A model generated the notes under the pieces. The model saw nothing but the letters and a program-made list of their open reading frames with translations. It was not told where the DNA came from and did not search any database. Shown here piece after piece: positions 17,209 to 36,069 of a stretch of DNA of 64,000 nt; the first letter of the stretch is position 1, and each line of letters starts with the position of its first letter. Origin of the DNA: Microbulbifer variabilis (GTDB lineage Bacteria; Pseudomonadota; Gammaproteobacteria; Pseudomonadales; Cellvibrionaceae); the NCBI RefSeq assembly GCF_023716485.1, contig NZ_CP092418.1, positions 1,285,001 to 1,349,000 on the forward strand. The letters are read 5' to 3'. Position numbers and translations under genes: made by a program.

Positions 17209-17219
17209 ACTGCCTGTGT

Positions 17220-20670: not shown

Positions 20671-20747
20671 ATAACGCCTAGCTTATCAATGAGGGTAACG
20701 AGTCCAATAGAGGCTGCTGATCGGAACGTAGTGCATCTGCTTGTAAA
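20671..20747 (-). repeat. attC 1 (array end, degenerate)
   Basis: Left end ATAACGCCTAGC is a good core; the right end GCATCTGCTTGTAAAATT is degenerate. 77 bases, placed after the gene at 20750. Last site on this side of the array. Confidence 0.6.
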
Positions 20748-20749
20748 AT

Positions 20750-21220
20750 TCATTGCTTGGAACTGCCTTTGACAGTGAATTTTTTTGTTAGCTTACGATC
20801 GGTGAGTAAATTTAGGTTTTCAGCGTAGTAATTTTGATCAATAGATAACACCCAGATGGTACCAGAAAGATTAACGGTAGCTTTAAGAGGAAATGTCACC
20901 GAGAACCTCGTTAAGATTGCTTTAGCTTCAACTCCATCTTGTGGTAACGCACCAGTCAGCAGTTCTGGTTCACCAGTGCATTCAAGCTTTAAAAGTTGAG
21001 AACCTGGTTGCTGATTATAAAGCTCTGTTTCTACATCCTTTACTACGAAGCTACGATAATCCGTTCCCAGTCCTAGCCACTCAATCATATGAGTGCTTTT
21101 ATCTGCACAGTCAAAACCTGAGATTTCAATGTGCTTATCTTTGTTAATGGACTCAATAGACTCTGCCAGTACCGACATACTCAATAGTGTAAATGTTATA
21201 AGTTTCAGAATCTTTAGCAC
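20750..21220 (-). CDS. Cassette gene: secreted protein, unknown function
   Basis: 156 residues with a signal peptide (MLKILKLITFTLLSMSVLAE, cleavage near residue 19). The mature part is predicted beta-rich, with two Cys (GFDCADK and KLECTGE). No family recognised. It is the last cassette before the acquired ABC exporter operon, and its stop abuts attC 1. Confidence 0.6.
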   Translation of the reverse strand: MLKILKLITFTLLSMSVLAESIESINKDKHIEISGFDCADKSTHMIEWLGLGTDYRSFVVKDVETELYNQQPGSQLLKLECTGEPELLTGALPQDGVEAKAILTRFSVTFPLKATVNLSGTIWVLSIDQNYYAENLNLLTDRKLTKKFTVKGSSKQ

Positions 21221-21235
21221 GATATCTCCGTGAAT

Positions 21236-21314
21236 TTAATGCCCGCCGCAAAGGTGAGCAATTTGTTGTGAGTCCAGCGCAAGAAGTGCGTGCATGTGCC
21301 GGCTTTCGTTAGAG
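21236..21314 (-). repeat. attC 2
   Basis: TTAATGCCCGCCGC at the left and TGCCGGCTTTCGTTAGAGA at the right pair as the outer arms; GTTAGAG is the right core. It follows the gene at 21309, whose stop lies inside it. Confidence 0.65.
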
Positions 21315-21692
21315 AGCAAGCGCACTACTAGCACTGACATGAAACGGTTCTCCAACAACCTCAACTATTTCTGGGATAGGAAAGTTGTTACCACTACAGT
21401 CAATTTCTATGTATTCAACCATTCCTGATTTTCCAGAGAAAATTAGGATCTCTAACGTTTTACCTGCTTCTGCAAGATTAAAGTTTGCTTCAAAAATTAC
21501 ACGATACTTACCTGGAACTGCAATGGCCTTGATGAAATCCGGGACCAGAACTTTGAAGCTATTACATCCGCACTGACAGAACTCAGAAAACACGGCTTTG
21601 TCGAGGTGATTCTTTAGCGCTTGTGTATCAGGGAACTGACATCTCTCTAAAATGAAGTTAATCCAATCCCTTGCTCTGTATTCGTTATTCAT
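21309..21692 (-). CDS. Cassette gene: cytosolic protein, unknown function
   Basis: 127 residues, no signal peptide. It contains FCQCGCNSF, a tight Cys cluster that could bind metal, and an acidic C-terminal half (MVEYIEIDCSGN, EIVEVVGEPF). In size and character it resembles small immunity-type proteins, but no family is recognised. It begins seven bases after the stop of the gene at 21700 with no attC between, so both seem to share one cassette. Confidence 0.6.
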   Translation of the reverse strand: MNNEYRARDWINFILERCQFPDTQALKNHLDKAVFSEFCQCGCNSFKVLVPDFIKAIAVPGKYRVIFEANFNLAEAGKTLEILIFSGKSGMVEYIEIDCSGNNFPIPEIVEVVGEPFHVSASSALAL

Positions 21693-21699
21693 AGTTTCT

Positions 21700-22137
21700 C
21701 TAACATTGGCTGCATTGTGTATCGTTAGGGTTTGTAACCTGAAAACTCCACAATTTTTCTACACGAGCCCGCTCCACAGGAATATCAAAACGCTCTAGCC
21801 AGCTATACGAAAACGGCAAAATCAATTCACAAAAATCAACCGTACTATTTTTAATTGGAAAAATGTATTTCTCGCTAATTGAAAGTTGCAAAGAATCACG
21901 ACTCTGTATATTTAAGTTTCTTCCCAAATTTCCTTTAAGCCAATGCTTGACCAAAAGTTGGTACTCATACTCATCTCTTGCTTTCAGATCGTACTTTCCT
22001 GAAACCACTTGGGCAACAATAACTCTGGGTCGCTGATTCCAGAACTCCTCAATGTAAACTGGCGGATCACGCTCGGCACATTCCCAGCTGTAGCAGGTGC
22101 TGGAACAAAGAAACAAAATTATTGGTAGTAGTTTCAT
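21700..22137 (-). CDS. Cassette gene: secreted protein, unknown function
   Basis: 145 residues with signal peptide MKLLPIILFLCSSTCYSW. The mature part begins WECAERDPPVYIEEFWNQRP and reads IVAQVVSGKYDLKARDEYEYQ, which recalls exported proteins with a TIMP/NTR-like fold that start near a Cys and have a V-x-G-x-V strand. It ends in a Cys pair (CSQC). It is the first gene of a two-gene cassette with 21309. Confidence 0.6.
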   Translation of the reverse strand: MKLLPIILFLCSSTCYSWECAERDPPVYIEEFWNQRPRVIVAQVVSGKYDLKARDEYEYQLLVKHWLKGNLGRNLNIQSRDSLQLSISEKYIFPIKNSTVDFCELILPFSYSWLERFDIPVERARVEKLWSFQVTNPNDTQCSQC

Positions 22138-22142
22138 AGTGC

Positions 22143-22197
22143 CTTAACGTCCGCGGAGGCCCGCTGGGCCTTAGCATCCTGCTTGCGTTTGTTAGAT
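22143..22197 (-). repeat. attC 3
   Basis: Short site of 55 bases: CTTAACGTCCGCGGAGGCCCG to the left, TGCTTGCGTTTGTTAGAT to the right. GTTAGAT is the right core. It follows the gene at 22198. Confidence 0.75.
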
Positions 22198-22569
22198 TTA
22201 CTCGAAGCAAATAGCATGGTTTACCATACCTAGCTCGACATTTGCCCAGCAACCACAAGGATTATTGGAGGTAGAGCACTGGCCCACGGCAAAAACGTTG
22301 CCAGCCTTACTCTCCGAAACCCTACATTCACCCTGGCATTGTGAACTACTTAGACAGGATTTTCCGGCATCCGAATAGTTAACGATGCACATTTTAGTAC
22401 CGGACATACACACAGGGCGAAGCTCCCCACCAACCGCGAGGCACTGTTCTGCTATTTCAATTGCATTGAGTCTCGCAAGTTTTTCTTGCTTATCTTTAGA
22501 AAGCATCCACTGCGTCATAGCAAACAACATCAAGATTACTAAAACAACGGTTGATATTGACTTGACCAT
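22198..22569 (-). CDS. Cassette gene: membrane-anchored Cys-rich protein
   Basis: 123 residues. One N-terminal hydrophobic segment (VVLVILMLFAMTQWML) acts as signal anchor or signal peptide. The remainder carries nine Cys in a pattern suggesting several disulfides (EQCLAVGG, PVCMSGTKMC, SCLSSSQCQGEC, GQCSTSNNPCGCW). Function unknown. Confidence 0.6.
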   Translation of the reverse strand: MVKSISTVVLVILMLFAMTQWMLSKDKQEKLARLNAIEIAEQCLAVGGELRPVCMSGTKMCIVNYSDAGKSCLSSSQCQGECRVSESKAGNVFAVGQCSTSNNPCGCWANVELGMVNHAICFE

Positions 22570-22574
22570 GGCAA

Positions 22575-22645
22575 TCTAACGTCTGCAACAAACGCGAGCG
22601 TTGTGAGTCGAGGCCGATAGGCCGGTTTGTTTGCGTTTGTTAGCC
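22575..22645 (-). repeat. attC 4
   Basis: TCTAACGTCTGCAACAAACG at the left, TTTGTTTGCGTTTGTTAGCC at the right, GTTAGCC core. 71 bases, after the gene at 22640. Confidence 0.78.
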
Positions 22646-23137
22646 AATTCTATCCACTTTAGTTTGATCTTTGATATATCCCAATTGAAATAGCTCTAAG
22701 GCAATTCTTTTAAGCTCAGATATCTCTTTTGCATTACGATCTTTTTTCGCACTAAGGATCTGATATCTCTTTTGCATCAGCTTAATGTTCTGATCATTTT
22801 TTCTGCAGTCGACGCATTTGGTACAATCGCCATCAACATAAAACCCCAGCCCTTCAAACCAGTGCTTCTGCTCGTTAGCAAAAAAAATAAACCATCGCCT
22901 GCATTGAATACAACAGCGTTCTATATCTACGTAAAACTTACGCGGAAATATTGAATAGTTCTGCCTATCAATATTTGCAGGGATAGCCGTTTCGGGGAAA
23001 ACACTATCTTTATCAAGGCTCCAATGAGCAGACGCAGCCATTTCAGCCGTCATCTTGCTTCCGGAGTATATTGGCTTGGAACCATATCGTGGATGATCTA
23101 CGTACTCTCTGTATCTCATTTTACGCTTCTTTGACAT
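22640..23137 (-). CDS. Cassette gene: zinc-ribbon domain protein
   Basis: About 165 residues. A probable zinc ribbon with CIQC and CVDC pairs flanks FIFFANEQKHWFEGLGFYVD, which matches the family described as probable zinc-ribbon domain (residues about 85-125). The N-terminus is basic (KKRKMRYREY), the C-terminus a charged helix. Start uncertain: GTG 23161, ATG 23137 and ATG 23119 are all in frame. Function unknown; such proteins are common in cassettes and phage. Confidence 0.65.
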   Translation of the reverse strand: MSKKRKMRYREYVDHPRYGSKPIYSGSKMTAEMAASAHWSLDKDSVFPETAIPANIDRQNYSIFPRKFYVDIERCCIQCRRWFIFFANEQKHWFEGLGFYVDGDCTKCVDCRKNDQNIKLMQKRYQILSAKKDRNAKEISELKRIALELFQLGYIKDQTKVDRIG

Positions 23138-23162
23138 TAGTTTATTTGGTAAGTCTTTCACT

Positions 23163-23274
23163 TAGCGCCATTACGAAAAGTGTAATTACAGCTTTAAGTT
23201 TTAACCTTGCCTTGCCATTCTAGGTCCTATAACTCCTTATACAGTGGCGCTGAGGCGTCGTTTTTTTGTTATAC
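23163..23274 (-). repeat. attC 5
   Basis: TTAGCGCCATTAC at the left and CAGTGGCGCTGAGGCG plus GTTATAC at the right; GGCGC arms pair. Long site of about 112 bases, 66 bases beyond the stop of the DUF6506 gene. Confidence 0.55.
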
Positions 23275-23340
23275 CCTTTAGATTATTGTTGTCGAAATAC
23301 CTATAAGCATTTATTGCTAGTTTTGTTTGAATGTTAAGTA

Positions 23341-23664
23341 TCAAGGCTTCATTATTTCAAGTAATTTTTTTCTATACTTGGGGCCATACATTACAATACC
23401 AATTGGAGTGTCGTCTTGTAATGCCTCTTCTAATTTAACAGCCCATTCTGGTCCAAAGCCACCACACAACTCAATAGACTGAACACCTTCATTAACAAGT
23501 TTTACCGCTGTTTCAATAATAGAATTGTCATTTTTAGCAGAAGGGTCAAAACCAACGGTTATGAATGTGCAATGTTGATTCTCATTTATCCTGGTGTTTT
23601 CTTCAGGTGAAAAGCCAGCTGAAAAATAGAAAAAAGCCCACTTTTTCAAATTCGGCAGTGTCAT
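23341..23664 (-). CDS. Cassette gene: DUF6506 family protein
   Basis: 107 residues from the ATG at 23664, which has GGAG eight bases upstream; an in-frame ATG lies at 23688. The sequence KKWAFFYFSAGFSPEENTRI, then LVNEGVQSIELCGGFGPEWA and GIVMYGPKY, matches DUF6506, a family of small cytosolic proteins of unknown function. Good ribosome-binding site and full length, so likely functional. Confidence 0.75.
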   Translation of the reverse strand: MTLPNLKKWAFFYFSAGFSPEENTRINENQHCTFITVGFDPSAKNDNSIIETAVKLVNEGVQSIELCGGFGPEWAVKLEEALQDDTPIGIVMYGPKYRKKLLEIMKP

Positions 23665-23771
23665 ATATTTCTCCAAAATAACTTTCATTCAATTACGAAT
23701 GAGAATCATAGACACTTAAGGCCGAATTTAAAAGTTTTTCACAAAAACAGGTTGTGTATGGATGAGGTGGC

Positions 23772-23841
23772 ATAACGCCGCCAACAAATGCTGAATGGTA
23801 GCGAGATCCATTCGTGTTTTTGGCGGCGATTTTACTGGGCT
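23772..23841 (-). repeat. attC 6, interrupted by IS110 copy
   Basis: CATAACGCCGCCAACAAATG at the left, with CGTGTTTTTGGCGGCG as returning arm. The IS110 pseudo-element follows at 23842, and the right core TTATGCC resumes at 24956 beyond it, abutting the DUF1993 gene. Confidence 0.7.
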
Positions 23842-24957
23842 TTGTATGGTTGTTCTTGCCCGATTCTGATGTTGAAAATCCTTTTCGCTAACGAGGAAAT
23901 TGAGCCCCACCTTCGGCGGCCACCGAAGGCCTTGTTTATCACTGTTCCCTGCCTGGCCGGTTTGTAAAAGACCGATAACAAGTATGTACGTGATAAGCAC
24001 TCACTAGGCATAACTCGAATAGTCATGTGGGCCTTGAGCCCGAATAGCAAGGCGGAGATAGCTTATCTTATGGAGCCTCAAGAGATCGGTGTCGGTATTT
24101 ATTCAGTAGTAAACAACTCGATATTTATGTGAGATCTACTGGCCAATTCTTTAGTGTTAACATTGCCAAAAATGGCATTAAAGATGCCATTAAACAACTA
24201 CAACCTCTTAAATCTCAGAGTGTATTAATAGAGTCAACTGGAAGGCTCGAATTAGTGTTTGTTTGCGCCGCAGATAAAGCAGGATTACCTATTGTCGTTT
24301 GCAATCCGTCTCAGATAAGAAGCTTCGCTAAATCCGAAGGACGCCTCGCTAAACCGACGGGCTAGATGCAATTGATATTGCACATTCTGGTGAGGCCATG
24401 AAGCCAAGACTATCGGCGCTAAAGCCAGAAAATCTTAGGGAGATCAGTGACTTGCTGGCGGTAAGAAGTCAGTGTTTAGATATGAGCACAATGCAAAAGA
24501 ATCGGCTCCTGAGAATGTAGAAATCAGTACTCAAACCTATACAGACCATTCTAAACACCATAAAGAAAGAGCTACAAGGTATCGACAAGCAACTGGATAA
24601 ACTGGTTAACAGTGTGTCTGAGTGGCGGCAAAGGCGCGACATACTGTTGAGTGCTAAAGGGGTCGGAAATGTATTGGTTTATACGTTGATGAGTGAGCTT
24701 CCCGAGGTAGGAAAATTGAACCGTAAAGAAATCGCTGCACTTGGCGGTATCACCCCGATGAACCGTGATAGTGGCAGCTTCCAGGGTTAGCCCTATATTC
24801 GAGGCGGACAACATCGTGTGCGTACAGTCTTATTTTTTTCTATGATGTCGGCAATACAATGCACCCTAAATTAAAACCAATGTATGAGCGCCTAGTCGCT
24901 GTTGGTAAACCAAAATAGATGGCTTAAATAATTGACTAAGGACCATAGTCACTTGTT
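23842..24957 (+). mobile_element. IS110-family element, decayed copy
   Basis: Matches the intact element at 32110-33308 from end to end (left TTGTATGGTTGTTCTTG, right CCATAGTCACTTGTTA) with many substitutions and about 80 bases missing overall. It keeps the CCTTCGG/CCGAAGG hairpin near 23909-23928. It is about 1.1 kb long and sits in attC 6. Confidence 0.9.
24073..24923 (+). pseudogene. IS110-family transposase, degenerate
   Basis: Remnant of the transposase encoded intact at 32337. Recognisable stretches include [29 protein letters not shown] and VVCNPSQIRSFAKSEGRL. The first part of the frame, around the initial catalytic Asp, is broken, the KTDKLDAID motif is lost at a frameshift near 24357, and in-frame stops occur near 24518 and 24788. 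It cannot make an active enzyme. Confidence 0.88.
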
Positions 24958-25471
24958 ATGCCACTTTAACCAAGGGAGCTACATGTGCCATATAGTTTAC
25001 CTTTCCCAAAGGAACCCCTTTCATCCGCATGATGTTGTAAGCAGAAACCAAATGAAAATAAAAGTTGGGGATTAGAAATTCTTGAATGTAATCCTTCCCC
25101 TTTAGCTCAAGATATTGATTTCCATCAAGGTTTATTCGCTTTAGTTCTGACAATTTTGAATCTCTTAGCTCCGAATCTTTAAGTTGAGATTTAGTTCGCT
25201 CAATTAGGTTCTTAGCTACAGTTAAGGACTCAATTTTAGGGGATAGATTATCGGATTCCTGATTTTTGCACCAAAGCGAGAAATTGTAAGGCTGATTACA
25301 TGTGTAGGCGATCTGTGTGCCAAAAGGAAGCATGTCTTCAATTAGTCGAAAATCCAATATAGATTCTGACTCCTCATGGAAGTGCTGTTCAGAAATTTCA
25401 AGAATATGACCAAGAGTCGTTAGCCTAGACGAAAATAAATCGACTAAATTCTTAGTTCTTTCCTTTGACAT
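24956..25471 (-). CDS. Cassette gene: DUF1993 (DinB-like) family protein
   Basis: 171 residues matching DUF1993, which has a DinB-like four-helix bundle: RLTTLGHILEISEQHF, RLIEDMLPFGTQIAYTCNQP, and the hallmark LIPNFYFHLVSAYNIMRMKG followed by LGKVNYM. Family members are metal-binding-type bundle proteins of unknown activity. A strong AGGAGG ribosome-binding site precedes the ATG. Its stop codon overlaps the right end of the decayed IS copy. Confidence 0.82.
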   Translation of the reverse strand: MSKERTKNLVDLFSSRLTTLGHILEISEQHFHEESESILDFRLIEDMLPFGTQIAYTCNQPYNFSLWCKNQESDNLSPKIESLTVAKNLIERTKSQLKDSELRDSKLSELKRINLDGNQYLELKGKDYIQEFLIPNFYFHLVSAYNIMRMKGVPLGKVNYMAHVAPLVKVA

Positions 25472-25498
25472 TGTATTACCTCCTTAACAGTGGAAAAT

Positions 25499-25600
25499 AT
25501 AACGCCCAAAGCACTGGCCGGAACGTAGTTGGTTTATTTTGTGCTATTAAAGCACAAAATAAAGCGGCGCAGTGGAGGTCAAGTACATTGCTTTGTCAGT
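25499..25600 (-). repeat. attC 7
   Basis: ATAACGCCCAAAGCACTGG at the left, GTACATTGCTTTGTCAG at the right, with an internal TTTTGTGCT/AGCACAAAA hairpin. The right core is degenerate (GTCAG). After the gene at 25605. Confidence 0.65.
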
Positions 25601-25604
25601 TTTT

Positions 25605-26111
25605 TTAATCGCAAAATGATAGCTTATTGCGTAAAACCAAACCAATAATCCCATTAGGATCTGAAGAAAGCTCGACGATTGATTGTTTGTTATCGCCGAT
25701 TGGTATTCGATGACACGGATTAGACTGGATTTGATCGTTTTTCTGATATAGAAAATACAGTTGAACTGAACCCAATTCAACAGGTATCCATGAGTTATTA
25801 AATGTAAATCGATCCCCTATTTCAAAAGTACTCTTGGTTGAATTCAATACCAAGAAAGTTGAGTCGATACCTCGATTCAGATCTTGCAATCTCTCCCACG
25901 CTGGAGAGTCACGCCACTCAATAGGCTTTGCGTTATATGAGCTAATTTCATGTGTCATATCTGCGTACGCGATGCGGCCTGAGATTTTCTTAGCAATAAC
26001 AATGTCAGTGGCATTATTCAAATCAACGCTTAAATTCTTATGATCATATTCAAACGAAATGGCTCGCTGAGAATAAAGGATGATTAATAAGGTTAGATAT
26101 ATAACTTTCAT
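25605..26111 (-). CDS. Cassette gene: secreted protein, unknown function
   Basis: 168 residues with signal peptide MKVIYLTLLIILYSQRAISF. The mature part has IVIAKKISGRIAYADMTHE near its start and FEIGDRFTFNNSW in the middle, resembling in layout the exported cassette protein at 21700, with a single late Cys pair (NPCHR, SFCD). No family recognised. Confidence 0.6.
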   Translation of the reverse strand: MKVIYLTLLIILYSQRAISFEYDHKNLSVDLNNATDIVIAKKISGRIAYADMTHEISSYNAKPIEWRDSPAWERLQDLNRGIDSTFLVLNSTKSTFEIGDRFTFNNSWIPVELGSVQLYFLYQKNDQIQSNPCHRIPIGDNKQSIVELSSDPNGIIGLVLRNKLSFCD

Positions 26112-26131
26112 TGATCGAAGCCCGATGAAAA

Positions 26132-26193
26132 CTAACGCCTTGCAGCAGAGGTCGGCACGTAGCGACGGTCCTGCTGACTGCGACTGTTATATT
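26132..26193 (-). repeat. attC 8
   Basis: CTAACGCCTTGCAGCAGAGG at the left, CTGCTGACTGCGACTGTTAT at the right; CAGCAG pairs with CTGCTG. 62 bases, after the gene at 26187. Confidence 0.7.
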
Positions 26194-26591
26194 TCGTTTT
26201 TCTTGAGCTGGTTTTCAAGGCTCTTTAAATCACCCAGTACCCATACATCAGAGATTCGATCACCTTCAAAGGTAAACAAAGCACACCCATTCCAAGTTAC
26301 GCGTTTATGTGATGGTAAAAAGCCCATAAACTCATCTCTATGAAATCCCGTAAAGGACATCTTTGCAAAAACCTTGTCTCCCTCTTCTACGAGATCTTCA
26401 ATAATGCATTTGTAATCACCCAGCGCTTTGTGAATCATATCGACATATTCAGCGAAACCTTTGTGACCTCGCTTTTCCTGCCCCAATGATCCTCTAAAGG
26501 AGAAACTCTCATGCAGGATCGATGGCATTGCTTTCTTATCGTGGGCATCCCAAAGAACCTCATAAAATCTTCGAACTTGATCTTTATGCAC
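26187..26591 (-). CDS. Cassette gene: SnoaL-like (NTF2-fold) protein
   Basis: 134 residues with a SnoaL-like/ester-cyclase pattern: VRRFYEVLWDAHDKKAMPSI, then FRGSLGQEKRGHKGFAEYVD, KVFAKMSFTGFHRDEFMGF and the final GDRISDVWVLGDL. A GTG start at 26591 is supported by GAGGAT six bases upstream. The fold is used by isomerases, cyclases and inactive binding proteins, so the function remains open. Confidence 0.8.
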   Translation of the reverse strand: MHKDQVRRFYEVLWDAHDKKAMPSILHESFSFRGSLGQEKRGHKGFAEYVDMIHKALGDYKCIIEDLVEEGDKVFAKMSFTGFHRDEFMGFLPSHKRVTWNGCALFTFEGDRISDVWVLGDLKSLENQLKKNEI

Positions 26592-26607
26592 TTGTCATCC
26601 TCAGAAA

Positions 26608-26664
26608 CATAACGAAGCGGCGTGTAAGCTGTCGGGCGCCAAAGGCGCGTAGTTAATTGACTTG
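26608..26664 (-). repeat. attC 9, interrupted by group II intron
   Basis: CATAACGAAGCGGCGTG at the left, with GGGCGCC/GGCGCG in the middle. The intron inserts after CTTG, and the site resumes at 27372 as TTATGTGG. Rejoined, the right end reads CTTGTTATGTGG. Confidence 0.7.
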
Positions 26665-27371
26665 GTACGTCCAACAAGAGCGTGGATTAATGGGGTGAAA
26701 GTCCGCTGTAGGAGGATCACCATTTAATGGATTCCATTAAATGCTAACTACTAGCGAATGGCAACTGCAATACCGTGAGGTCTTGTGGGGAGGAAGCCGC
26801 TAGCAAAACTATGAGCTGACGAACAGAAACATCCTATAAGGCTTAGTCTGGAGACGAGGTGACCAAGGACACCGAAGTCATGTGATCTAACGGGTAGAGT
26901 AAATGATACAGTTGTGTAGTGAAAGTTCACGCTCTTATCGGGAGAGATCTGTTTAGCTTGTTGCTGTGAAGCTGACAGGCGGCCGCTGACTCATAAGTAG
27001 GCCCAACCCGCTAGCTACCATCGTGAGGAGAAAAAAATGGTGGAACACAGCGGCGTCTCGGTCAGTAATGATCAAGGTGATTAAACAGAAGTCAGCCGAC
27101 GGCATAGTAGCCTAATGCCAAGAGTAATACCTTGGATACGGTGAAGGCCTGAACCCAAAATCCACGAATTAAAAGACAGGGCTAGCCTACCGATATGTTG
27201 TCAGCCGGATATAAAATTGACGTAGCACACAGCAATGACACTCAACTCAAATGAAGAGCTGCTCGACGTAATCGCTGGGTAGAAGTTCATTACGGATAGG
27301 GAACCGCCCATTGCGGACTCGCACGATGGGTGGTGTGGGGGCCGGTAGCTAGAAACTACCGGCTACCCGAT
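26665..27371 (+). mobile_element. ORF-less group II intron inserted in attC
   Basis: A 707-nt element beginning GTACGTCC and ending CTACCCGAT. Domain V is at about 27303-27334: ACCGCCCA pairs with TGGGTGGT, a CGA bulge, and TGCG pairs with CGCA around a GACT loop. Domain VI follows: GCCGGTAG (27341-27348) with CTACCGGC (27356-27363), and an unpaired A at 27365 seven bases from the 3' end as candidate branch point. There is no reverse transcriptase/maturase frame, so mobility would need a maturase supplied in trans. It is oriented opposite to the cassettes, as known for attC-targeting group II introns. Confidence 0.85.
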
Positions 27372-27903
27372 TTATGTGGCATTTGGGCAAAGAACGATAT
27401 GGCGAGATTTTAGCCGAGGTAGATTCCCAATATTTCAGATAATCAATTGATGGGTAGCTCATCCGAGTCAACAATATCCGTGAATCAGCCTTAGATGTGG
27501 GAGCAGTCGCTATTGCCGAATTACCTGCCCCCTTCTTGTCCCAAAGTAACCACACTCCAAATATCATAGCCAGGAAACAGAATACCCAAAGTATTACTGG
27601 GCCAGAAGCCCCCTTAAATTTAAAACCCATGGCTTCGAATTCGATTGGACCTCGAGCGATCTCCAGCAATGCAACGAGACAAAACGCTGTTATCGCTGAC
27701 ATGGCTATTCCTATGGTCGCGGCCGGATGTTCTTGGACCATTTGGAGAAACCAGTTGTTGGAGGTGGCGCTCCCGACAATTGACTGATAAATGAGAAAAA
27801 TAAAGAAGTAGCCAGCCCAAAGCGCCGTACCTATGACAGCTGCCCAAGTTATCCACCGGCGAAGGTTCTGAATACCGTTTGTATTGGGCTCAGGCTCTTG
27901 CAT
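27349..27903 (-). CDS. Cassette gene: membrane protein with intron-derived tail
   Basis: 184 residues with about three hydrophobic helices (WITWAAVIGTALWAGYFFIF, IGIAMSAITAFCLVALLEIA, GPVILWVFCFLAMIFGVWLL) and a soluble C-terminal part. AAGGAAAG precedes the ATG. The last seven residues (NRVAGSF) and the stop are encoded by the inserted group II intron; before insertion the frame would have continued into the attC site. Function unknown. Confidence 0.65.
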   Translation of the reverse strand: MQEPEPNTNGIQNLRRWITWAAVIGTALWAGYFFIFLIYQSIVGSATSNNWFLQMVQEHPAATIGIAMSAITAFCLVALLEIARGPIEFEAMGFKFKGASGPVILWVFCFLAMIFGVWLLWDKKGAGNSAIATAPTSKADSRILLTRMSYPSIDYLKYWESTSAKISPYRSLPKCHINRVAGSF

Positions 27904-28733: not shown

Positions 28734-28758
28734 AAATTACCTCTCAGTGGAGACTGAC

Positions 28759-28867: not shown

Positions 28868-29260
28868 GCCTTGGTCCACTACGATGCTTTCTTTAAATAC
28901 ATCTTCAGTAACAGAAAAGTAGTAGATGCTTGCCAGGTAAGCGGGCAATGAGACTAAGATTGCGCCGATATAACTAAGACTATATTCCATAGCTTCAATA
29001 TATAAACCAACAATTGAAATGATAAATAGTAAAATTGCCAAACCGTACTTAGATCCTACCTTTCGCCATGTTTCAAAATCGACTGTTGGTGAATTTGCCA
29101 TTTTTTTGGAAACGTCATATACCAGGTTGCAACCAAAAATCGTAGTTACAAAGGCAAAATATGAATCGTTTGCAACTTTATTAAGGATGTAAAACAGAAC
29201 CATACTCGGAGCAATCCACAACAACAGCGCGATAATTTTTACCCGATTCAAACCATGCAT
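28862..29260 (-). CDS. Cassette gene: four-helix membrane protein
   Basis: 132 residues with four predicted membrane helices arranged as two hairpins: IIALLLWIAPSMVLFYIL, YFAFVTTIFGCNLVYDV, LAILLFIISIVGLYIEAM, and LSYIGAILVSLPAYLASIYY. AAGGAATAGG precedes the ATG. No family recognised. Confidence 0.65.
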   Translation of the reverse strand: MHGLNRVKIIALLLWIAPSMVLFYILNKVANDSYFAFVTTIFGCNLVYDVSKKMANSPTVDFETWRKVGSKYGLAILLFIISIVGLYIEAMEYSLSYIGAILVSLPAYLASIYYFSVTEDVFKESIVVDQGN

Positions 29261-29288
29261 AACCTATTCCTTGGTTGTTTTTCTTGCA

Positions 29289-29343
29289 ACTAACGCCTCA
29301 CTCAACGGACGCGCCAGCGTTCCGTGCAGTGACTTGTTAAATT
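29289..29343 (-). repeat. attC 12
   Basis: ACTAACGCCTCACTCAACGG at the left, CGTGCAGTGACTTGTTAAAT at the right; CACT pairs with AGTG. Short site, before the gene at 29355 in array order. Confidence 0.78.
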
Positions 29344-29354
29344 TGTATTCTGCG

Positions 29355-29717
29355 TTAATCACAGGGGAATTTCCTTTGAAGTGCTCTTAGTAGAGCAAAT
29401 CCTGGCGGCATTTCTACTCTACTACCATTCAATTTCTCTCGAAAAGCATACTCGTCGTCTATAAGATTTAAGTAGTTTTGAGTATTAAGCTTAATAGTTA
29501 GGCAGAATAGCTTTTTCTCGCCTCTGCTCTCTAGCGCTGCGTTGGACCAAAGTAAGCCCTCCATCACCGAATTGAGATATATATCAGTACTAGTACTATC
29601 TGATTTGATATGATTTTCAAAAGTGTTTCTGTCAATAAAGGAAGCTGAAGAGGTAGCTGGAACCAACAATAGCAAAGTCAGGTAAATGAATGTCGGTTTC
29701 AAAGGTATGCGTCTCAT
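29355..29717 (-). CDS. Cassette gene: Rap1a/Tai-like exported protein
   Basis: 120 residues from the ATG at 29717; the frame is open further back, but only through attC 13. Signal peptide FIYLTLLLLVPATSSASF. The mature part fits the Rap1a/Tai immunity-protein pattern: TDIYLNSVMEGLLWSNAAL, then KLFCLTIKLNTQNYLNLI, ending LLRALQRKFPCD with two Cys for the conserved disulfide. Known Rap1a proteins are periplasmic immunity proteins against type VI effectors; no effector gene is nearby. Family assignment is moderate. Confidence 0.6.
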   Translation of the reverse strand: MRRIPLKPTFIYLTLLLLVPATSSASFIDRNTFENHIKSDSTSTDIYLNSVMEGLLWSNAALESRGEKKLFCLTIKLNTQNYLNLIDDEYAFREKLNGSRVEMPPGFALLRALQRKFPCD

Positions 29718-29735
29718 AAATTTCCCGCACTTAAA

Positions 29736-29832
29736 TCTAACGCCGCCAACACGGGCCGCAGTGGAGGCGCGAAGCGCCGGAACGGAGGTCCGAGCCCTGC
29801 AAAGCAGGGCTGTAGTGCTTGGCCTTATTAAA
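29736..29832 (-). repeat. attC 13
   Basis: TCTAACGCCGCCAACACGGG at the left, GTGCTTGGCCTTATTAAAG at the right, internal GCCCTGC/GCAGGGC hairpin. 97 bases, after the broken gene at 29852. Confidence 0.72.
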
Positions 29833-29851
29833 GCTTGATGCACTCACCAAT

Positions 29852-30247
29852 TCATACCCTTGGTGCGGCTGCAGTATTGCCTGCCAGAAATTGAACACCT
29901 AAATCGGCTGAGATAAATGTTCCTTTGTTTTTTGACTTCCTGGCAAACTTGAAATGGTAGTCATTTTTGTTTCCACAATGTGCCATGCCTATTTCAGGAA
30001 ACCAATATTGACAGCGGAATATGAGTGTCCCCTCATTCGTTTCGTACACTCCATATTCTTCACCTCCTTTCTTATCTTCTTTTTATAATGGTTTTAAAAA
30101 AAATTGATTTCCTTTAAATATACCTTGCTCCCATTTTTCTGTCTTGCCGCTGTAAAAATATCCAGTTTCACTTTCAGAAGTACATAGATAAGTTTCTGCC
30201 ATACACGGCAGGGACACAAGTAGCAATAACAATTTCAGAGTACGCAT
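29852..30247 (-). pseudogene. Cassette gene with in-frame stop: secreted protein
   Basis: The frame starts at an ATG at 30247 with signal peptide MRTLKLLLLLVSLPCMAE and runs 131 codons to 29852, but codon 55 is TAA (30083-30085). Both halves are in the same frame: YLCTSESETGYFYSGKTEKW before, YETNEGTLIFRCQYWFPEIG after. A single nonsense change therefore seems to have inactivated it recently; a 65-residue downstream frame could start at a GTG at 30049. No family recognised. Confidence 0.7.
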
Positions 30248-30257
30248 AGATTTTCTC

Positions 30258-30346
30258 TTTAACGCCTTGACCTGCGGCCGCAGCGAAATGGAGGTCCGGT
30301 GGAGGCAACGCAGTTGCCGGAACGAACAGCATCAATTTGTTATGTG
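30258..30346 (-). repeat. attC 14
   Basis: TTTAACGCCTTGACCTGCGG at the left, AGCATCAATTTGTTATGTG at the right, with a GGAGG-rich centre. 89 bases, after the phosphatase gene. Confidence 0.7.
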
Positions 30347-30358
30347 TAACTATACTCT

Positions 30359-31072
30359 TCACTTAGGGTTGTTAATAGTATGGAATCTGGGCGCACCTTC
30401 ACTAACATACGAAAATGTTAACCCGTAACTATCTCCGTATCTGCGTAGGATATGAACACACGTATCTATACACACCACATTCCCTTTAATCATGGGTTCT
30501 TCCAGCCCTTGATGACCTATGAATAACCATTTAACTCCTTCAACATTCCTTTCTTCGCCTGAAACGAACGCTCTACTCCAAGTTGCATGTTCAATCATTT
30601 CAGAATCGCTTGAACCAAGACCAGCTTTAAATTGATTCCAGTTTGCCCTTTCGGGCAAATACGCATGCGTTACACCAACAATTCCCGAGGTGTTTTTGAT
30701 CTCTATAATCCAACTCAAAAGCCTCATCAACTCTAAGCATTCATGCTTTTCGTCAATCGAGAGTGAATATCTCCAGTTATTCTCAATCGAACGTTTTGAC
30801 GGATTGCCTTTAAGATATTCATACAGCATTCGCTCATGATTACCAGCAACCGCGAAAAACCACGGATTATGGAGAAGTCTCAGCGACTCCATGCTGCTTT
30901 GTCCGCGATCAACGAGATCCCCGACACTGAATACTCGGTCTTTATCAGGATCAAAGTTGAGAGAATCTAGGCCCCTCCAAAATGATTCGATAGATCCATG
31001 AATATCGCCAACAAAGTAATCTACACCAAGCTCGTTCTCGGCTAACACTAATGTCGATTCGTTCAAATTCAT
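30359..31072 (-). CDS. Cassette gene: PP2A-like metallophosphoesterase
   Basis: 237 residues. All metallophosphoesterase signature motifs are present: GDIHG (residues about 22-26), GDLVDRG, GNHE, and later VTHAYLP and FIGHQG. This is the layout of lambda-phosphatase/PrpA-PrpB-type serine/threonine phosphatases and related Ap4A hydrolases, which use two bridging metal ions. Full length and with all catalytic residues, so probably active. One of the few cassette genes here with a predictable enzymatic activity. Confidence 0.85.
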   Translation of the reverse strand: MNLNESTLVLAENELGVDYFVGDIHGSIESFWRGLDSLNFDPDKDRVFSVGDLVDRGQSSMESLRLLHNPWFFAVAGNHERMLYEYLKGNPSKRSIENNWRYSLSIDEKHECLELMRLLSWIIEIKNTSGIVGVTHAYLPERANWNQFKAGLGSSDSEMIEHATWSRAFVSGEERNVEGVKWLFIGHQGLEEPMIKGNVVCIDTCVHILRRYGDSYGLTFSYVSEGAPRFHTINNPK

Positions 31073-31097
31073 CTGATAGTGGAACTCACTTCCTTAC

Positions 31098-31157
31098 ACA
31101 TAACGCCGCCAGCAGGGGTAGACAAAGTGCGCAGCGGTTTGGCTGGTCTTGTTAGGG
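31098..31157 (-). repeat. attC 15
   Basis: ACATAACGCCGCCAGCAGGG at the left, GGCTGGTCTTGTTAGGGC at the right. 60 bases, after the gene at 31152. Confidence 0.8.
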
Positions 31158-31982
31158 CTTTTGCTCTGCTGAGGCATTGAACTCAATTCTCATTGGTAGG
31201 TTGGTCATAGCATAGTGTATGAACTGTTGACCTAGTGCTGTAAGTTCATAGCCTTCATTTTCATCAAATGCAGAAACTGGTGGCTTAGGGCCACTACCTT
31301 TGGATCGTCTTTGTGGAGTTTTGGGTATTACATTACCCATGTAATCTCGTTCTTTGTGCTGGCGAATAATTCCCCCGGTACTAAGATCTCTGAACAGAAG
31401 TTTGTAAAGATCGGCATCTGCCGAGTCTTCACGAACCTGCCCCTTACCAATTTTTCTCCAGATTTGGCCCCTAGTGATTCCGTCACTGTTATAGATTGCA
31501 CCAATAACTTGAAAATGCATCTCAGAATAGATGTTGATCCAGTCAATGAACATTCGGACCACGTCATCACTGGAAACTTGGCAACTAGCTGCATTTGCAA
31601 GAATGTTACGTATATATTCGCGCTTCTCTTCACTTTCAGCGCATGACCACTCCCTAAAAGTTTTCTTTACAAGTGACTGATAAGAGCGGCTTTCAACACG
31701 TTCAGAAATTGCTTGATCTTGGAGATCTAGCCTTCCCATTATTTCGATGATGGTTTCTTCTTTTTCCTTGAGCTCATCTTCAAGCATGCGAACCCAATGC
31801 TCGAAGAAGCGATTTACCTTATCTTGCTCATGCTCAGACCAAGCACCCGCGATTGCAGAAAAAATTCCTCCTGCAATAGGTACAGCACCACCTGCAGCTG
31901 ACAATGCACCACGAGTGACTTTTGAGACTTTTCCACTTTCAGGGAGTTTGTTTTCTTCTACATCTTCAATTTCATCACTCAT
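31152..31982 (-). CDS. Cassette gene: conserved protein with hydrophobic N-terminus, unknown function
   Basis: 276 residues, the largest cassette protein apart from the IS. An acidic start is followed by a Gly/Ala-rich hydrophobic segment (ALSAAGGAVPIAGGIFSAIA, about residues 27-46), a helical region with a coiled coil (VRMLEDELKEKEETI), then YQSLVKKTFREWSCAESEEK, and a winged-helix-like region GAIYNSDGITRGQIWRKIGK, ending in a basic linker. The architecture (membrane-active segment plus winged helix) would suit an abortive-infection or defence role, but no family is recognised. Confidence 0.7.
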   Translation of the reverse strand: MSDEIEDVEENKLPESGKVSKVTRGALSAAGGAVPIAGGIFSAIAGAWSEHEQDKVNRFFEHWVRMLEDELKEKEETIIEIMGRLDLQDQAISERVESRSYQSLVKKTFREWSCAESEEKREYIRNILANAASCQVSSDDVVRMFIDWINIYSEMHFQVIGAIYNSDGITRGQIWRKIGKGQVREDSADADLYKLLFRDLSTGGIIRQHKERDYMGNVIPKTPQRRSKGSGPKPPVSAFDENEGYELTALGQQFIHYAMTNLPMRIEFNASAEQKP

Positions 31983-32001
31983 TGCTGATTCCTTGTGATC
32001 G

Positions 32002-32111
32002 CCCTAACGCCCGCAACAGGGGCAGACAATGCTATGCACATTTTGTGCAAAAATGGGAGCCGAGCGACCGCACAAAAAGTGCGTAGGGTTGGCTGTCGCT
32101 CTGCTTGCGTT
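32002..32111 (-). repeat. attC 16 (long type), interrupted by IS110 element
   Basis: CCTAACGCCCGCAACAGGGG at the left with an internal CATTTTGTGC/GCACAAAAAGTG hairpin. The IS inserts at TT in GCTTGCGTT, and AGGC resumes at 33309. Rejoining gives GCTTGCGTTAGGC, a perfect attC end. Confidence 0.82.
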
Positions 32112-33278
<1,167 letters not shown>

Positions 33279-33306
33279 ATACTTGACAAAGGACCATAGT
33301 CACTTG

Positions 33307-33639
33307 TTAGGCATAGATTGCGGAGCACCTCTTAAAACAACCTAAGAAAAAAATAATAAATGATAAAACTGTGGACAGAGGTAGAAGAAGGATAACCGGA
33401 ACGCCACGTATCTGGCCGGTGAAGTATAAAGTTAACCCAATAGCCAGAACCGCAAGAATGAATAGAAGCTGCCCTAGAATTGCCTTCCCGCATATTTGAA
33501 AAATAATTTTGTAGTTTACCGACTTTCTATTTATTAAGCCAAGGAAATAGAAAATCGGGATACTCAAAATTGCCATTATAACCACCGGAGAAAAAACAAG
33601 AAATCCAAAAACTAAATTCTTAGTGGCTGCAAAATCCAT
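33307..33639 (-). CDS. Cassette gene: membrane protein
   Basis: 110 residues from the ATG at 33639, chosen because the upstream in-frame codons lie in attC 17. Three hydrophobic helices: LVFGFLVFSPVVIMAILSIP, ILGQLLFILAVLAIGLTLYF, and VILLLPLSTVLSFIIFFLGC. No family recognised. Its stop lies against the right end of the intact IS. Confidence 0.6.
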   Translation of the reverse strand: MDFAATKNLVFGFLVFSPVVIMAILSIPIFYFLGLINRKSVNYKIIFQICGKAILGQLLFILAVLAIGLTLYFTGQIRGVPVILLLPLSTVLSFIIFFLGCFKRCSAIYA

Positions 33640-33645
33640 ATTGAT

Positions 33646-33782
33646 GCCTAACGCCCGCAACAGGGGCGACCTATGCTATGCACATTTTGTGCGAAACTGG
33701 GAGTCACAGCGACTGCACAAAATGTGCATAGCTTTGGGCGTCCCGCGGAGGCCCGTAGCTTACTACTTGCGCTTGTTAGCCA
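33646..33782 (-). repeat. attC 17 (long type)
   Basis: CCTAACGCCCGCAACAGGGG at the left, CTTGCGCTTGTTAGCC at the right, with the same internal TGCTATGCACATTTTGTGC block as attC 16. 137 bases, the longest intact site. Confidence 0.85.
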
Positions 33783-34158
33783 TTTGTTGGAGCTGCGCCA
33801 GCCCCTGTTTACCGATATCCCCGAGCGAGCGAGTGTTTGAACAAGAACTAATTTCTGGAATCGAACCAGTTTTCCCAAAAACTACATACTTGTATCCTAC
33901 CACCATGTGAGACGCACATATATCTTCTGAAAACAATGTATTTTTGACTTTTTTTGTATCTGCTACGCCCTTCATTTTCTCTAATATAACTAATTCGTTT
34001 GTGACTACGCCATTGTCACCAAGCGTTGATGACTGAACCTGACCGAGATAAACATAGTCAGACTCCAAATATCTCTTCCCAAGAGGAGTATCTACGCAGT
34101 AGCAGCCGAACGCTAACTGAGATGTAAACAGCGTTAAAAGTAATATAAAGCTCTTCAT
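33763..34158 (-). CDS. Cassette gene: secreted TIMP/NTR-like protein
   Basis: 131 residues with signal peptide MKSFILLLTLFTSQLAFG. The mature chain begins CYCVDTPLGKRYLESDYVYL followed by GQVQ, the CxC-at-the-N-terminus plus V-x-x-G-x-V pattern of TIMP/netrin-like OB folds seen in bacterial exported proteins. Further Cys (EDICASH, ISSCSN) could close disulfides. Function unknown. Confidence 0.6.
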   Translation of the reverse strand: MKSFILLLTLFTSQLAFGCYCVDTPLGKRYLESDYVYLGQVQSSTLGDNGVVTNELVILEKMKGVADTKKVKNTLFSEDICASHMVVGYKYVVFGKTGSIPEISSCSNTRSLGDIGKQGLAQLQQMANKRK

Positions 34159-34174
34159 TCTAAGACGACCTTAT

Positions 34175-34246
34175 GGTTAACGCCGCAAGCAAAGGCGCGC
34201 GTTAGCGCGTCCAGCCCGCAGGGCGATTTTGCCTTGCCTTATTATA
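34175..34246 (-). repeat. attC 18
   Basis: GGTTAACGCCGCAAGCAAAG at the left, TTTTGCCTTGCCTTATTAT at the right; GGCAAG-type arms pair. The right core is degenerate. 72 bases, after the gene at 34242. Confidence 0.7.
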
Positions 34247-34601
34247 ACTTTGGTTGCCCAACGAAAACACGATAGAACACCCCCGATGCAGCACCCCAAA
34301 GCGTGCCAGCTATTTGAAAAACGAATGGTAAGCCTGTTATTGCCAAGACAAATAATGCCAGCAAGCCACCAATGATACCCACAACTGGCACTGTGAAAAT
34401 ATTACGTTTAATGAGCTGCGGCTGAATGAATAGCCCAGACAACAGCGACAGCAATAGTGCTACTGGAAACCCTAGCGCAACTACAGCAAAAGAGATGTCG
34501 CTGGTATCTTTTGGATGAAGCCCATTAATTAAATACCCGGCTAAAACCGCAAGAATACCTCCCGCTAATGGCGCTAAGACTATTGCAATTTCTCGTTTCA
34601 T
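34242..34601 (-). CDS. Cassette gene: four-helix membrane protein
   Basis: 119 residues, almost entirely hydrophobic, with four predicted membrane helices: IVLAPLAGGILAVLAGYLI, FAVVALGFPVALLLSLLSGL, VPVVGIIGGLLALFVLAI and VFQIAGTLWGAASGVFY. Small Gly/Ala-rich membrane proteins like this are common in cassettes. No family recognised. Confidence 0.65.
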   Translation of the reverse strand: MKREIAIVLAPLAGGILAVLAGYLINGLHPKDTSDISFAVVALGFPVALLLSLLSGLFIQPQLIKRNIFTVPVVGIIGGLLALFVLAITGLPFVFQIAGTLWGAASGVFYRVFVGQPKL

Positions 34602-34609
34602 ATTGAGTT

Positions 34610-34688
34610 ATAACGCCTGGCGCAACGGCGAAGCACATAGTGCTGAGTCCGGCAGCCGATGGTTGCGTATTGCCGCCGCTTGTTAGGC
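34610..34688 (-). repeat. attC 19
   Basis: TATAACGCCTGGCGCAACGG at the left, GCCGCCGCTTGTTAGGC at the right, an almost ideal site with GTTAGGC core. 79 bases, after the gene at 34692. Confidence 0.88.
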
Positions 34689-34691
34689 TGC

Positions 34692-35060
34692 TTAAAACAT
34701 TTCACTGTAATTATATTTAGCAGCCTCTGAAACATAATTCACTGGGTCATCAAATAGCGTTATTAGCTCTCCTCTCAAACTTTCAATATGTTCGTCCCCA
34801 ATTATATCGCAGACATGTTCTCTAATTCTTGGATTTTCATTGTTAATATTAGACTTGAGGAGGGTGTTCCTATCTTCTGAGTACTTGTAAACCCTATAAG
34901 CGAAAACCCACCCCGAAACCTTATCATCGTTGAACTTAAGTGCAAGCTTCTCTATTTCAGCATTGTCAAGAAAAAAATCACGCTGAGAAATAGCTGCGAA
35001 TAGGGCTTCCGTCACCTCATCTTTATTATCGCTAAAAACCGCTCTGTGATAATCATCCAT
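34692..35060 (-). CDS. Cassette gene: HEAT-repeat-like protein
   Basis: 122 residues, all helical. The second half has HEAT-like units: NNENPRIREHVCDIIGDEHI and LRGELITLFDDPVNYVSEAA. The first half (VTEALFAAISQRDFFLDNAE) is probably a diverged repeat. Such small repeat proteins usually bind other proteins. No partner is suggested by the context. Confidence 0.65.
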   Translation of the reverse strand: MDDYHRAVFSDNKDEVTEALFAAISQRDFFLDNAEIEKLALKFNDDKVSGWVFAYRVYKYSEDRNTLLKSNINNENPRIREHVCDIIGDEHIESLRGELITLFDDPVNYVSEAAKYNYSEMF

Positions 35061-35066
35061 AATGAG

Positions 35067-35160
35067 CCCTAACGCCCGGCTTAGGGGCGGGTTTGTAGCT
35101 GCAAAGCAGCGGAAAAGCCGTCCCAGCCCCGAAGGGGCAACTACAGCCGCTTGTTATGTG
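35067..35160 (-). repeat. attC 20 (first site of array)
   Basis: CCTAACGCCCGGCTTAGGGG at the left, CTACAGCCGCTTGTTATGTG at the right, with internal TAGCTGC/GCAGC and CCCCGAAGGGG hairpins. 94 bases, after the gene at 35168. Confidence 0.85.
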
Positions 35161-35167
35161 CTTTGAC

Positions 35168-35413
35168 TTAGCCATTACTATCAAAGAGCTTGCGCTGATT
35201 CTTTAACTCATTGAAAACACTTATATAGTCATACAACTGAGCTGGATCAGTGCTGGAGCCATCGCCGCAAACACCTAGAGAGCCAAGGAGCCATGAAGTA
35301 TCCACCTCTCCACGCTTATGTATCTCTAGAACAAACTGATACATCAATTCGTATGAGTCTCTTAAAGATATTTTCTCAGAGAATTTATCGTCTTTTAACT
35401 CTAAGTAGCTCAC
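35168..35413 (-). CDS. Cassette gene: small protein, unknown function
   Basis: 81 residues from a GTG at 35413 with AAAGGAAG upstream. Cytosolic and mostly helical: LRDSYELMYQFVLEIHKRG and LYDYISVFNELKNQRKL around a Gly/Ser-rich segment (LLGSLGVCGDGSS). No family recognised. It is the first cassette of the array; a lone core-like GTTATGTGC (reading the minus strand) at 35431-35439 precedes it with no attC beyond. Confidence 0.55.
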   Translation of the reverse strand: MSYLELKDDKFSEKISLRDSYELMYQFVLEIHKRGEVDTSWLLGSLGVCGDGSSTDPAQLYDYISVFNELKNQRKLFDSNG

Positions 35414-36069
35414 ATTCAGCTTCCTTTAAGGCACATAACAGCTATATAGTTATCATTCTGACCATTATTATCCTGATTGTTATCTCAGAATCAATTTTTA
35501 CGCCAAAGCCTAAATTTTTATTTAAAACCATAGACTTAAAGCATCCTGATACGTCCGTGCAAACTGGAAAAAATGATCACTTTGACTACTATCCAAATTT
35601 TAACGCTAGTCCGTAACCCTTGATTTCAGTATTGTTTTTGGGTTTATCTTCTTGTTCTCTAATATCACGGTCAATATGATCGCAAATCCCTAAGCTGGCA
35701 CTCGCCAATTTTTACAGGCCGGTATTAGTTGGGGAGTGGTTAAGGTATCCAGGGTGCCTCTGAATCACTCTGTAATATCTCTGCGGATCTTGAAGGCTAA
35801 AGATGTTAGGTGCAGTTCGCCGCGAATGGACATGGCCCTTTGCAAGCGTTGCAATGCAGCAGATGCGGTCTTCAAGGATCGACCTGAGGGGTTTCCATAA
35901 CGATTCATTTCTTCTATGGTCTAGTCTTTCCTGTGAAGCTGCGCTCTTATTGAAACCACTCTGTAAGAAGAGGCATCACTGGGTTCTTCAGAGGCTCCTA
36001 AATCTCGCAGTAATATCTTAAAAGTCTGCAAGTTACTTTGGTCTATGGAGAGATCTTTTCTGTAGATAT
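35414..36069. other. Gene-poor boundary of the array
   Basis: This is where an attI site and divergent integrase gene would be expected. Neither is present; the sequence is AT-rich near the array and then has short interrupted frames (35803-36021) with no recognisable product. It may hold a relic insertion, but I cannot identify it. Confidence 0.5.

What the first reader, a model, noticed from the sequence alone, without database searches (positions are those of the whole stretch)
20671..35440. Large integron cassette array without an integrase
About 20 attC-like sites, all in one orientation, separate short minus-strand genes over 15 kb. The sites share TAACGCC/GTTRGGC-type ends and internal symmetry. 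The divergent integrase and attI expected beyond 35440 are absent, and there is no tyrosine recombinase elsewhere in the window. This is a cluster of attC sites lacking an integrase (CALIN) or the distal part of a sedentary chromosomal integron split from its integrase. A lone half-core GTTATGTGC at 35431 marks the break.
Basis: partly seen in the sequence, partly recalled or inferred. Interest (0 to 1): 0.85.

Follow-up and report, generated by a model that had tools for sequence, protein, structure and literature searches.

The report
Integrase-less integron keeping its attI
This is a row of mobile gene cassettes that has lost its own recombination enzyme but kept the docking site where new cassettes enter; related bacteria carry many such docking sites and few enzymes, and the cassettes beside them have kept changing, which suggests that a shared enzyme made elsewhere in the genome serves them.

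Summary
The cassette array is real: a covariance model built without window sites finds 13 attC at E<=0.01, all on one strand. The genome is one 4.86 Mb contig, genus inferred as Microbulbifer. The half-core at 35431 holds the attI crossover; window 35435-35743 aligns to the attI/integrase-promoter region of an intact integron at 2.742 Mb, up to the base before its intI start codon. Three congeners have the same attI and the same missing intI. Mean identity is 93% in the attI core and 37% on the cassette side, so cassettes changed after intI was lost. This genome has 9 attI cores of two types and 2 intact intI; with two congeners, 27 cores, 5 with intI within 1.5 kb. Two other solo attI here have first cassettes over 99% identical to cassettes of the intI2 integron. 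Best reading: a CALIN with a retained attI, restocked in trans; recent exchange at the window's own array was not seen. Precedents: a Shewanella prophage CALIN with attI (PMC9892861) and satellite arrays in Saccharophagus (PMC2386152).

The parts
14705..35440 (-). Cassette array C: genes on -, attC bottom strand on +; 14705-20670 is its decayed distal part (includes an ABC-transporter gene pair whose status as cassette is uncertain)
35067..35160 (+). attC, 52.0 bits (R2), nearest to attI
34608..34689 (+). attC, 51.1 bits
34175..34248 (+). attC, 37.7 bits
33646..33782 (+). attC, 33.1 bits
32002..33311 (+). attC (25.1 bits over 32002-32118) interrupted by an IS110/IS1111-type insertion sequence, about 32110-33310
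32217..33278 (+). intact IS110-family transposase, 353 aa; three further identical copies in the genome
31098..31158 (+). attC, 40.5 bits
30257..30346 (+). attC, 44.0 bits
29735..29834 (+). attC, 40.1 bits
29288..29343 (+). attC, 38.9 bits
28759..28868 (+). attC, 26.9 bits
28097..28153 (+). attC, 41.7 bits
26610..27376 (+). decayed attC split at TTG/TTA by a 707-nt ORF-less group II intron (26665-27371, ends set by eye)
26130..26193 (+). attC, 20.4 bits
25497..25602 (+). decayed attC, 11.2 bits (not significant alone, E 1.4)
23770..24960 (+). attC (16.3 bits, E 0.066) interrupted by a decayed copy of the same insertion sequence (about 23842-24924)
22574..22646 (+). attC, 32.4 bits
22142..22198 (+). 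weak attC, 15.4 bits (E 0.12)
21234..21315 (+). weak attC, 16.4 bits (E 0.061)
20670..20795 (+). attC-like ends TAACGCC...TTTGTTAGC, not found by the model
17173..17312 (+). decayed attC (9.9 bits, E 3.1) with a remnant of the insertion sequence at 17220-17312
35431..35494 (.). attI core site (GTT on - at 35437-35439) and conserved attI core; four-species identity starts here
35467..35494 (-). Pc-like promoter TTGATT-16-GATAAT pointing into the array (1 found; shuffles give mean 1.6, so not significant by itself)
35435..35743 (.). attI plus former integrase-promoter region, homologous to the region left of intI2; homology ends at the base before the intI2 start codon
35744..36100 (.). sequence that stands where intI should be; 35751-35998 matches two other places in the genome in full or part
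20750..35413 (-). cassette genes: 6 of 20 proteins have a Pfam match over the cut-off (treble-clef protein, DUF6506, DUF1993, SnoaL, DUF6680, calcineurin-like phosphoesterase)

Best explanation
The array is an integron that lost its intI gene in an ancestor shared by at least four species of the genus but kept its attI. It is one of seven solo-attI places found in this genome, beside two integrons with intact intI. Cassettes are captured at solo attI by IntI made elsewhere in the cell (in trans); at the window's own attI this happened after the species split, but no very recent capture is visible. Shown: attI retained, intI missing with the same junction in four species, cassette side different from exactly the crossover on, same cassettes at several attI of one genome. 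Inferred: that IntI1 or IntI2 does it, and that it still can.
For: Homology of 35435-35743 to the attI region of intI2 up to the base before its ATG. Orthologous locus in G013, G009 and G008: right flank collinear at 86-90% from the crossover on, no intI, same junction; invariant columns 7 of 73 on the cassette side against 53 of 61 in the attI core. Cassettes shared between orthologous arrays lie deep: window 25576-26967 with G009, and 3.6 kb of G013 with G009. attC score falls with distance from attI (R2, 19 sites, rho -0.78, p 8e-5). In this genome the cassettes next to the solo attI of array E and those next to the attI of the intI2 integron are 99.6% identical over 781 bp in register, and 100% over 783 bp one repeat unit further in, while the attI regions are 77% alike where they align. 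The first cassette at the solo attI of array D is 99.2% identical over 374 bp to cassettes of the intI2 integron. In G013 two attI without intI share 99.5% over 1326 bp on the cassette side. 27 attI cores in G000, G009 and G013, 5 with intI within 1.5 kb.
Against: Array C shares no cassette of >=90% and >=120 bp with the other arrays fetched from its own genome, only the insertion sequence with the attC next to it. In the four orthologs the attI core is hardly more conserved than the rest of the promoter region (0.87 against 0.83 invariant), so there is no sign of selection to keep it. The Pc-like match is no better than shuffles. Distal attC sites are badly decayed. No recombination was measured. 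Replacement of cassettes by homologous recombination with other strains cannot be excluded by sequence alone.
Confidence: 0.78

Rival explanations
1. Frozen relic: intI and activity were lost together; cassette differences among species come from old polymorphism, deletion and homologous exchange, and nothing has entered at this attI since.
For: No close cassette copies of array C in the other fetched arrays of the same genome, decayed distal attC, attI core evolving no slower than its surroundings.
Against: intI was already missing in the common ancestor, yet the attI-proximal sequence differs in all four species and the break is exactly at the crossover; two other solo attI of the same genome have near-identical cassettes of the intI2 integron.
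Confidence: 0.15
2. Distal half of a chromosomal integron separated from its integrase by rearrangement.
For: None beyond the absence of intI.
Against: attI and the integrase-promoter region are present at 35435-35743; the flanks are collinear with three congeners on the right and two on the left.
Confidence: 0.02
3. Cassette cluster seeded by insertion at a non-attI place (attG-type, or a repeat carried by a transposase as proposed for Saccharophagus satellites).
For: Insertion at attG sites and transposed repeats are described (PMC12444791 passage; PMC2386152 section).
Against: A recognisable attI region of about 310 bp sits at the entry end.
Confidence: 0.02
4. The attI-like block is not the entry site but a repeat element that itself spreads next to cassettes.
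For: It is multi-copy, with a palindromic core; the copy at 4.283 Mb has no attC match in the 20 kb stretch around it.
Against: It also stands in the attI position beside intI2 and beside intI of congeners, and cassette sequence starts exactly at it in four species.
Confidence: 0.03

Closest known systems
CALIN (cluster of attC sites lacking an integron-integrase; IntegronFinder 2.0, PMC9024848, passages read)
   Same: attC cluster, cassettes in one orientation, no intI nearby.
   Different: Keeps a recognisable attI and integrase-promoter region. By the paper, attI outside class 1 is poorly described and not detected by IntegronFinder, so such arrays would be filed with plain CALINs.
Shewanella prophage M16-3 (PMC9892861, passages and figure legend read)
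   Different: One CALIN in one prophage; here several chromosomal places, two attI types, shared across species with different cassettes.
Saccharophagus degradans core integron with five satellite sites (PMC2386152, one section read)
   Same: One integron with integrases and several satellite clusters with the same intergenic repeat in one chromosome, with some gene duplication between clusters and little synteny.
   Different: The authors suggest that transposition of a repeat made the satellite sites; the section does not mention attI. Here each solo array was found by its attI, homologous to that of the integrase-bearing integrons.
Xanthomonas CALINs at conserved loci (PMC12444791, passages read)
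   Same: Conserved positions across species; the authors state that CALINs can be mobilised in trans by a functional IntI.
   Different: In X. citri pv. citri the CALIN holds the same two cassettes in all genomes analysed; here content differs between species at the same attI. The passages I read mention no attI at those CALINs.
IS1111-attC insertion sequences (Tetu and Holmes 2008; seen as a title in the reference list of PMC11187229, passages read)
   Same: IS110/IS1111-type transposase inserted in attC sites.
   Different: No difference tested; subterminal repeats and guide RNA were not examined.
Group II introns in attC sites (PMC7923331, abstract and passages read)
   Same: Intron in the attC bottom strand, opposite to the cassette genes; also reported in CALINs.
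   Different: Here ORF-less, split TTG/TTA by eye against the reported TTGT/T, and 22 of 28 matching pieces in the genome lie in one other array, with a single decayed RVT_1 match.

Membership tests
[quoted passage not shown]
   13 at E<=0.01 with a model built without window sites
CALIN | no integron integrase gene beside the cluster | tested here: met
   no TIGR02249 match in the window at E<=0.001; tblastn E 0.18-0.34 only
Complete integron | intI gene next to attI | tested here: not met
   homology ends at the base before the intI2 start codon; other sequence follows
Complete integron | attI site at the entry end of the array | tested here: met
   by homology, not by recombination assay
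Complete integron | cassette promoter Pc | tested here: inconclusive
   TTGATT-16-GATAAT found, but shuffles give mean 1.6
Integron-type recombination | cassette exchange exactly at the attI crossover | tested here: met
   four-species alignment breaks at AAC/GTT
Integron-type recombination | recombination by an IntI supplied in trans | not testable with these tools
   inferred
IS1111-attC group | IS110-family DEDD transposase | tested here: met
   NF033542 190.4 bits, cut-off 140; DEDD_Tnp_IS110
IS1111-attC group | inserted in attC | tested here: met
   copies at 1.462, 1.478, 3.460 and 3.472 Mb and two in the window lie among attC matches
IS1111-attC group | subterminal inverted repeats and guide RNA | not tested
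   none
Group II intron | catalytic domains | tested here: inconclusive
   D1-D4 models at 116.8 and 63.5 bits; no D5-D6 model matched at E<=0.1

The most novel reading that the evidence does not exclude
Microbulbifer runs a distributed integron: one or two integrases serve a set of attI-capped arrays scattered round the chromosome. Redundant intI copies are lost while attI and its promoter are kept, so that many loci can hold a 'first, expressed' cassette at once, possibly under one regulator that binds the repeated palindromes in the attI regions.
Probability: 0.35. Interest if true: 0.8.

Novelty: new variant of a known kind. Interest (0 to 1): 0.55.

Why it matters
CALINs have been proposed to be degraded integrons (passage in PMC9024848). 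Here solo attI sites outnumber integrases several-fold, recur across species, and at the window locus the cassettes changed after intI was lost. That makes 'are integrase-less arrays alive?' directly testable, with a natural set of attI sites, two candidate integrases and shared cassettes as tracers. It also means that tools which do not look for attI would file such arrays with plain CALINs.

Tried and rejected
Rejected: REP-type repeats (the sites fit an attC covariance model and separate genes). Rejected: intI2 broken by a stop; the TAG flagged is its natural stop after 326 aa. Rejected: rearrangement of a distal array. Tried: selection on the attI core within the four orthologs, not supported. 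Tried: cassettes of array C in the other fetched arrays of this genome, none at >=90% and >=120 bp. Tried: Pc promoter scan, not above shuffles. The first attC alignment A1 was poorly aligned in the stems and was not used. Defence models on 10 of the 20 cassette proteins gave two weak matches only (E 0.0023 and 0.0018), not pursued. In the distance test I kept 19 of the 22 rows, those in the array, and dropped 13464, 57626 (-) and 35432 (-), all with E>=1; sites too decayed for the model are missing from that test. The whole-genome attC search scored 150 of 1553 first-look candidates, so its 59 matches are a lower bound.
Full report
What is there. The window is G000:C1:1285001-1349000 of a one-contig genome of 4.86 Mb; IntI2 of this genome is 83% and 81% identical to proteins of two records titled Microbulbifer. 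In window 20671-35440, short genes on the - strand are separated by attC sites. Because attC differ in length and sequence, I built covariance models with the R and L stems paired. R1 used 28 sites, 7 of them from the window. R2 used only the 21 sites from other loci of the genome. R2 finds 13 window sites at E<=0.01 and 17 at E<=0.12, all on the + strand at 15962-35160 and none elsewhere in the window.

The entry end. A genome-wide search with 35150-36700 gave a 71% match directly left of intI2 at 2.742 Mb. Aligned in full, window 35435-35743 follows that region to the base before the intI2 start codon. It is therefore attI and the former integrase promoter. After 35743 comes other sequence, part of which (35751-35998) matches two other places in full or part, and then a csrA paralog.

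Other places in the genome. Two intact intI exist: intI1 (359 aa, 3.477 Mb) and intI2 (326 aa, 2.742 Mb). A decayed intI lies at 1.235 Mb near one attC match. The attI2 region matches at six further places with the core: 0.692, 1.171, 1.320 (window), 1.799, 2.835 and 4.283 Mb. The attI1 region matches once more, at 1.460 Mb. That makes 9 cores, 7 of them solo: tblastn with both IntI at E<=1e-4 hits none of the seven solo loci, each searched to 1.5 kb on either side. attC matches lie within 1.5 kb of the attI at 0.692, 1.171 and 1.320 Mb. At 1.799 Mb the nearest model matches are about 1.4 kb away, beyond repeats of a 387-bp cassette. At 2.835 Mb they are about 5 kb away. In the 20 kb around 4.283 Mb the model has no match at E<=0.5, and the array at 1.460 Mb has many.

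Same attI, other cassettes. In G013, G009 and G008 the locus is orthologous: the right flank is collinear at 86-90% from the crossover on, and the left flank at 85-87% ends at window 14705 in G013 and G008. For G009 I did not fetch the left flank. intI is missing in all four with the same junction. Identity collapses at the crossover: 7 of 73 columns invariant on the cassette side, 53 of 61 in the attI core, 205 of 246 in the rest of the attI region. The sequence next to attI differs in each species. The clear shared cassette stretches lie deep: 1.4 kb of the window array with G009, 8.5 kb from attI in both; and 3.6 kb of G013 with G009, 3.1 and 11.2 kb from attI. Besides these, one search shows matches of introns and insertion sequences, two attC-sized matches of 79 and 119 bp, and a repeat at G013 13204-13834 and 15197-15485 with several partial copies in G009 (72-89%), which I did not identify. 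Since intI was already missing in the common ancestor, the private proximal cassettes most likely arrived afterwards. The fall of attC score with distance from attI (rho -0.78, 19 sites) fits entry at attI.

Exchange within genomes. The cassettes next to the attI of the intI2 integron and those next to the solo attI at 1.799 Mb are 99.6% identical over 781 bp in register, and 100% over 783 bp one repeat unit further in, while the attI regions are 77% alike over the part that aligns. A 387-bp cassette occurs twice in the intI2 array, four times in array E and once in array D, at 98-100%. The cassette directly at the solo attI of array D is 99.2% identical over 374 bp to cassettes in the intI2 array. 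In G013 two attI without intI share 99.5% over 1326 bp on the cassette side although their other flanks belong to different loci. Among 8 cross-genome pairs of attI loci that share at least 1 kb of the far flank (6 groups), none shares the cassette side at E<=1e-15. Three of those pairs involve a locus at a contig start with under 80 bp on that side, which leaves 5 informative pairs, 0 sharing. The cross-genome matches that do occur on the cassette side are between loci of different groups. Array C itself shares only the insertion sequence, with the attC next to it, with other arrays at >=90% and >=120 bp.

How common. Of 58 genomes searched (37 of the genus including this one), 10 match the attI2 region at E<=0.01, this one included, and 16 match the attI1 region at E<=0.001; all are of the genus, and some match only outside the core (two of the 10). 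At most 12 candidates per genome were scored in each search, so counts are lower bounds. In G000, G009 and G013, whose main contig holds most or all of the genome, I count 9, 12 and 6 attI cores; 2, 2 and 1 of them have an intI match over the cut-off within 1.5 kb (positions). One of those five, in G009, is truncated.

Mobile elements in the array. Two insertion sequences of the IS110/IS1111 kind interrupt attC sites; one has an intact transposase with three identical copies elsewhere. A group II intron without an open frame for a reverse transcriptase splits the attC at 26610. Matches to it crowd the array at 1.145-1.167 Mb (22 of 28 matching pieces, the window's own included among the 28), where the genome's only RVT_1 match is decayed.

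Literature. I searched the open PMC library for CALIN+integron+attI (20 papers), Microbulbifer+integron, CALIN+in trans+integron integrase, four of five terms on orphan arrays and loss of the integrase, IS1111-attC, attG (29 found, 10 listed) and arrays lacking intI with attI. PMC9892861 reports a CALIN with its own attI in a Shewanella prophage. PMC2386152 reports five satellite clusters beside a core integron in Saccharophagus degradans. PMC9229058 reports that CALINs occur in most Shewanella genomes it studied. PMC12444791 and PMC9668308 state that CALINs can be served in trans. Of PMC12901181 I saw the abstract. None of the listed abstract starts or of the passages I read describes several solo attI per chromosome with cassette turnover across species; subscription papers and preprints were not searched.

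Verdict. The array is a CALIN that kept its attI, one of a set. Service in trans is well supported for arrays D and E, supported across species for array C, and untested by experiment.

Noticed in passing
26665-27371 and L035/L036 (G000 1.144-1.167 Mb): Pieces of ORF-less group II introns fill another array (22 of 28 matching pieces, all on one strand), with one decayed RVT_1 match in the genome: perhaps a burst of introns left without their enzyme.
   Followed up: partly
36197-36902: About 500 bp upstream of a csrA paralog (36714-36902) match six other places in the genome; one lies at the array at 1.169 Mb, one about 7 kb from an intron match at 0.162 Mb. Whether csrA follows there was not checked.
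   Followed up: partly
35443-35700; L009 9175-9420: Three inverted repeats of the kind GGTCA..TGACC recur in the type-2 attI regions (by eye); the first lies next to the Pc-like -10 box. The binder is unknown.
   Followed up: no
L010 7535-10036 (G000 1.2335-1.236 Mb): An attC match followed by a decayed intI; an attI-like stretch between them is seen by eye only, BLAST with both attI types gave no match there. In G005 (L090) a 55-residue start of intI remains beside an attI. Both look like stages of intI loss.
   Followed up: partly
17385-20545: An ABC-transporter ATPase and an FtsX-type permease lie between a decayed, IS-interrupted attC and the attC-like site at 20670; they may be an unusually long two-gene cassette or a later insertion.
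   Followed up: no
G005: A draft congener (260 contigs) with 11 attI2 core matches and no integron integrase match over the cut-off.
   Followed up: no
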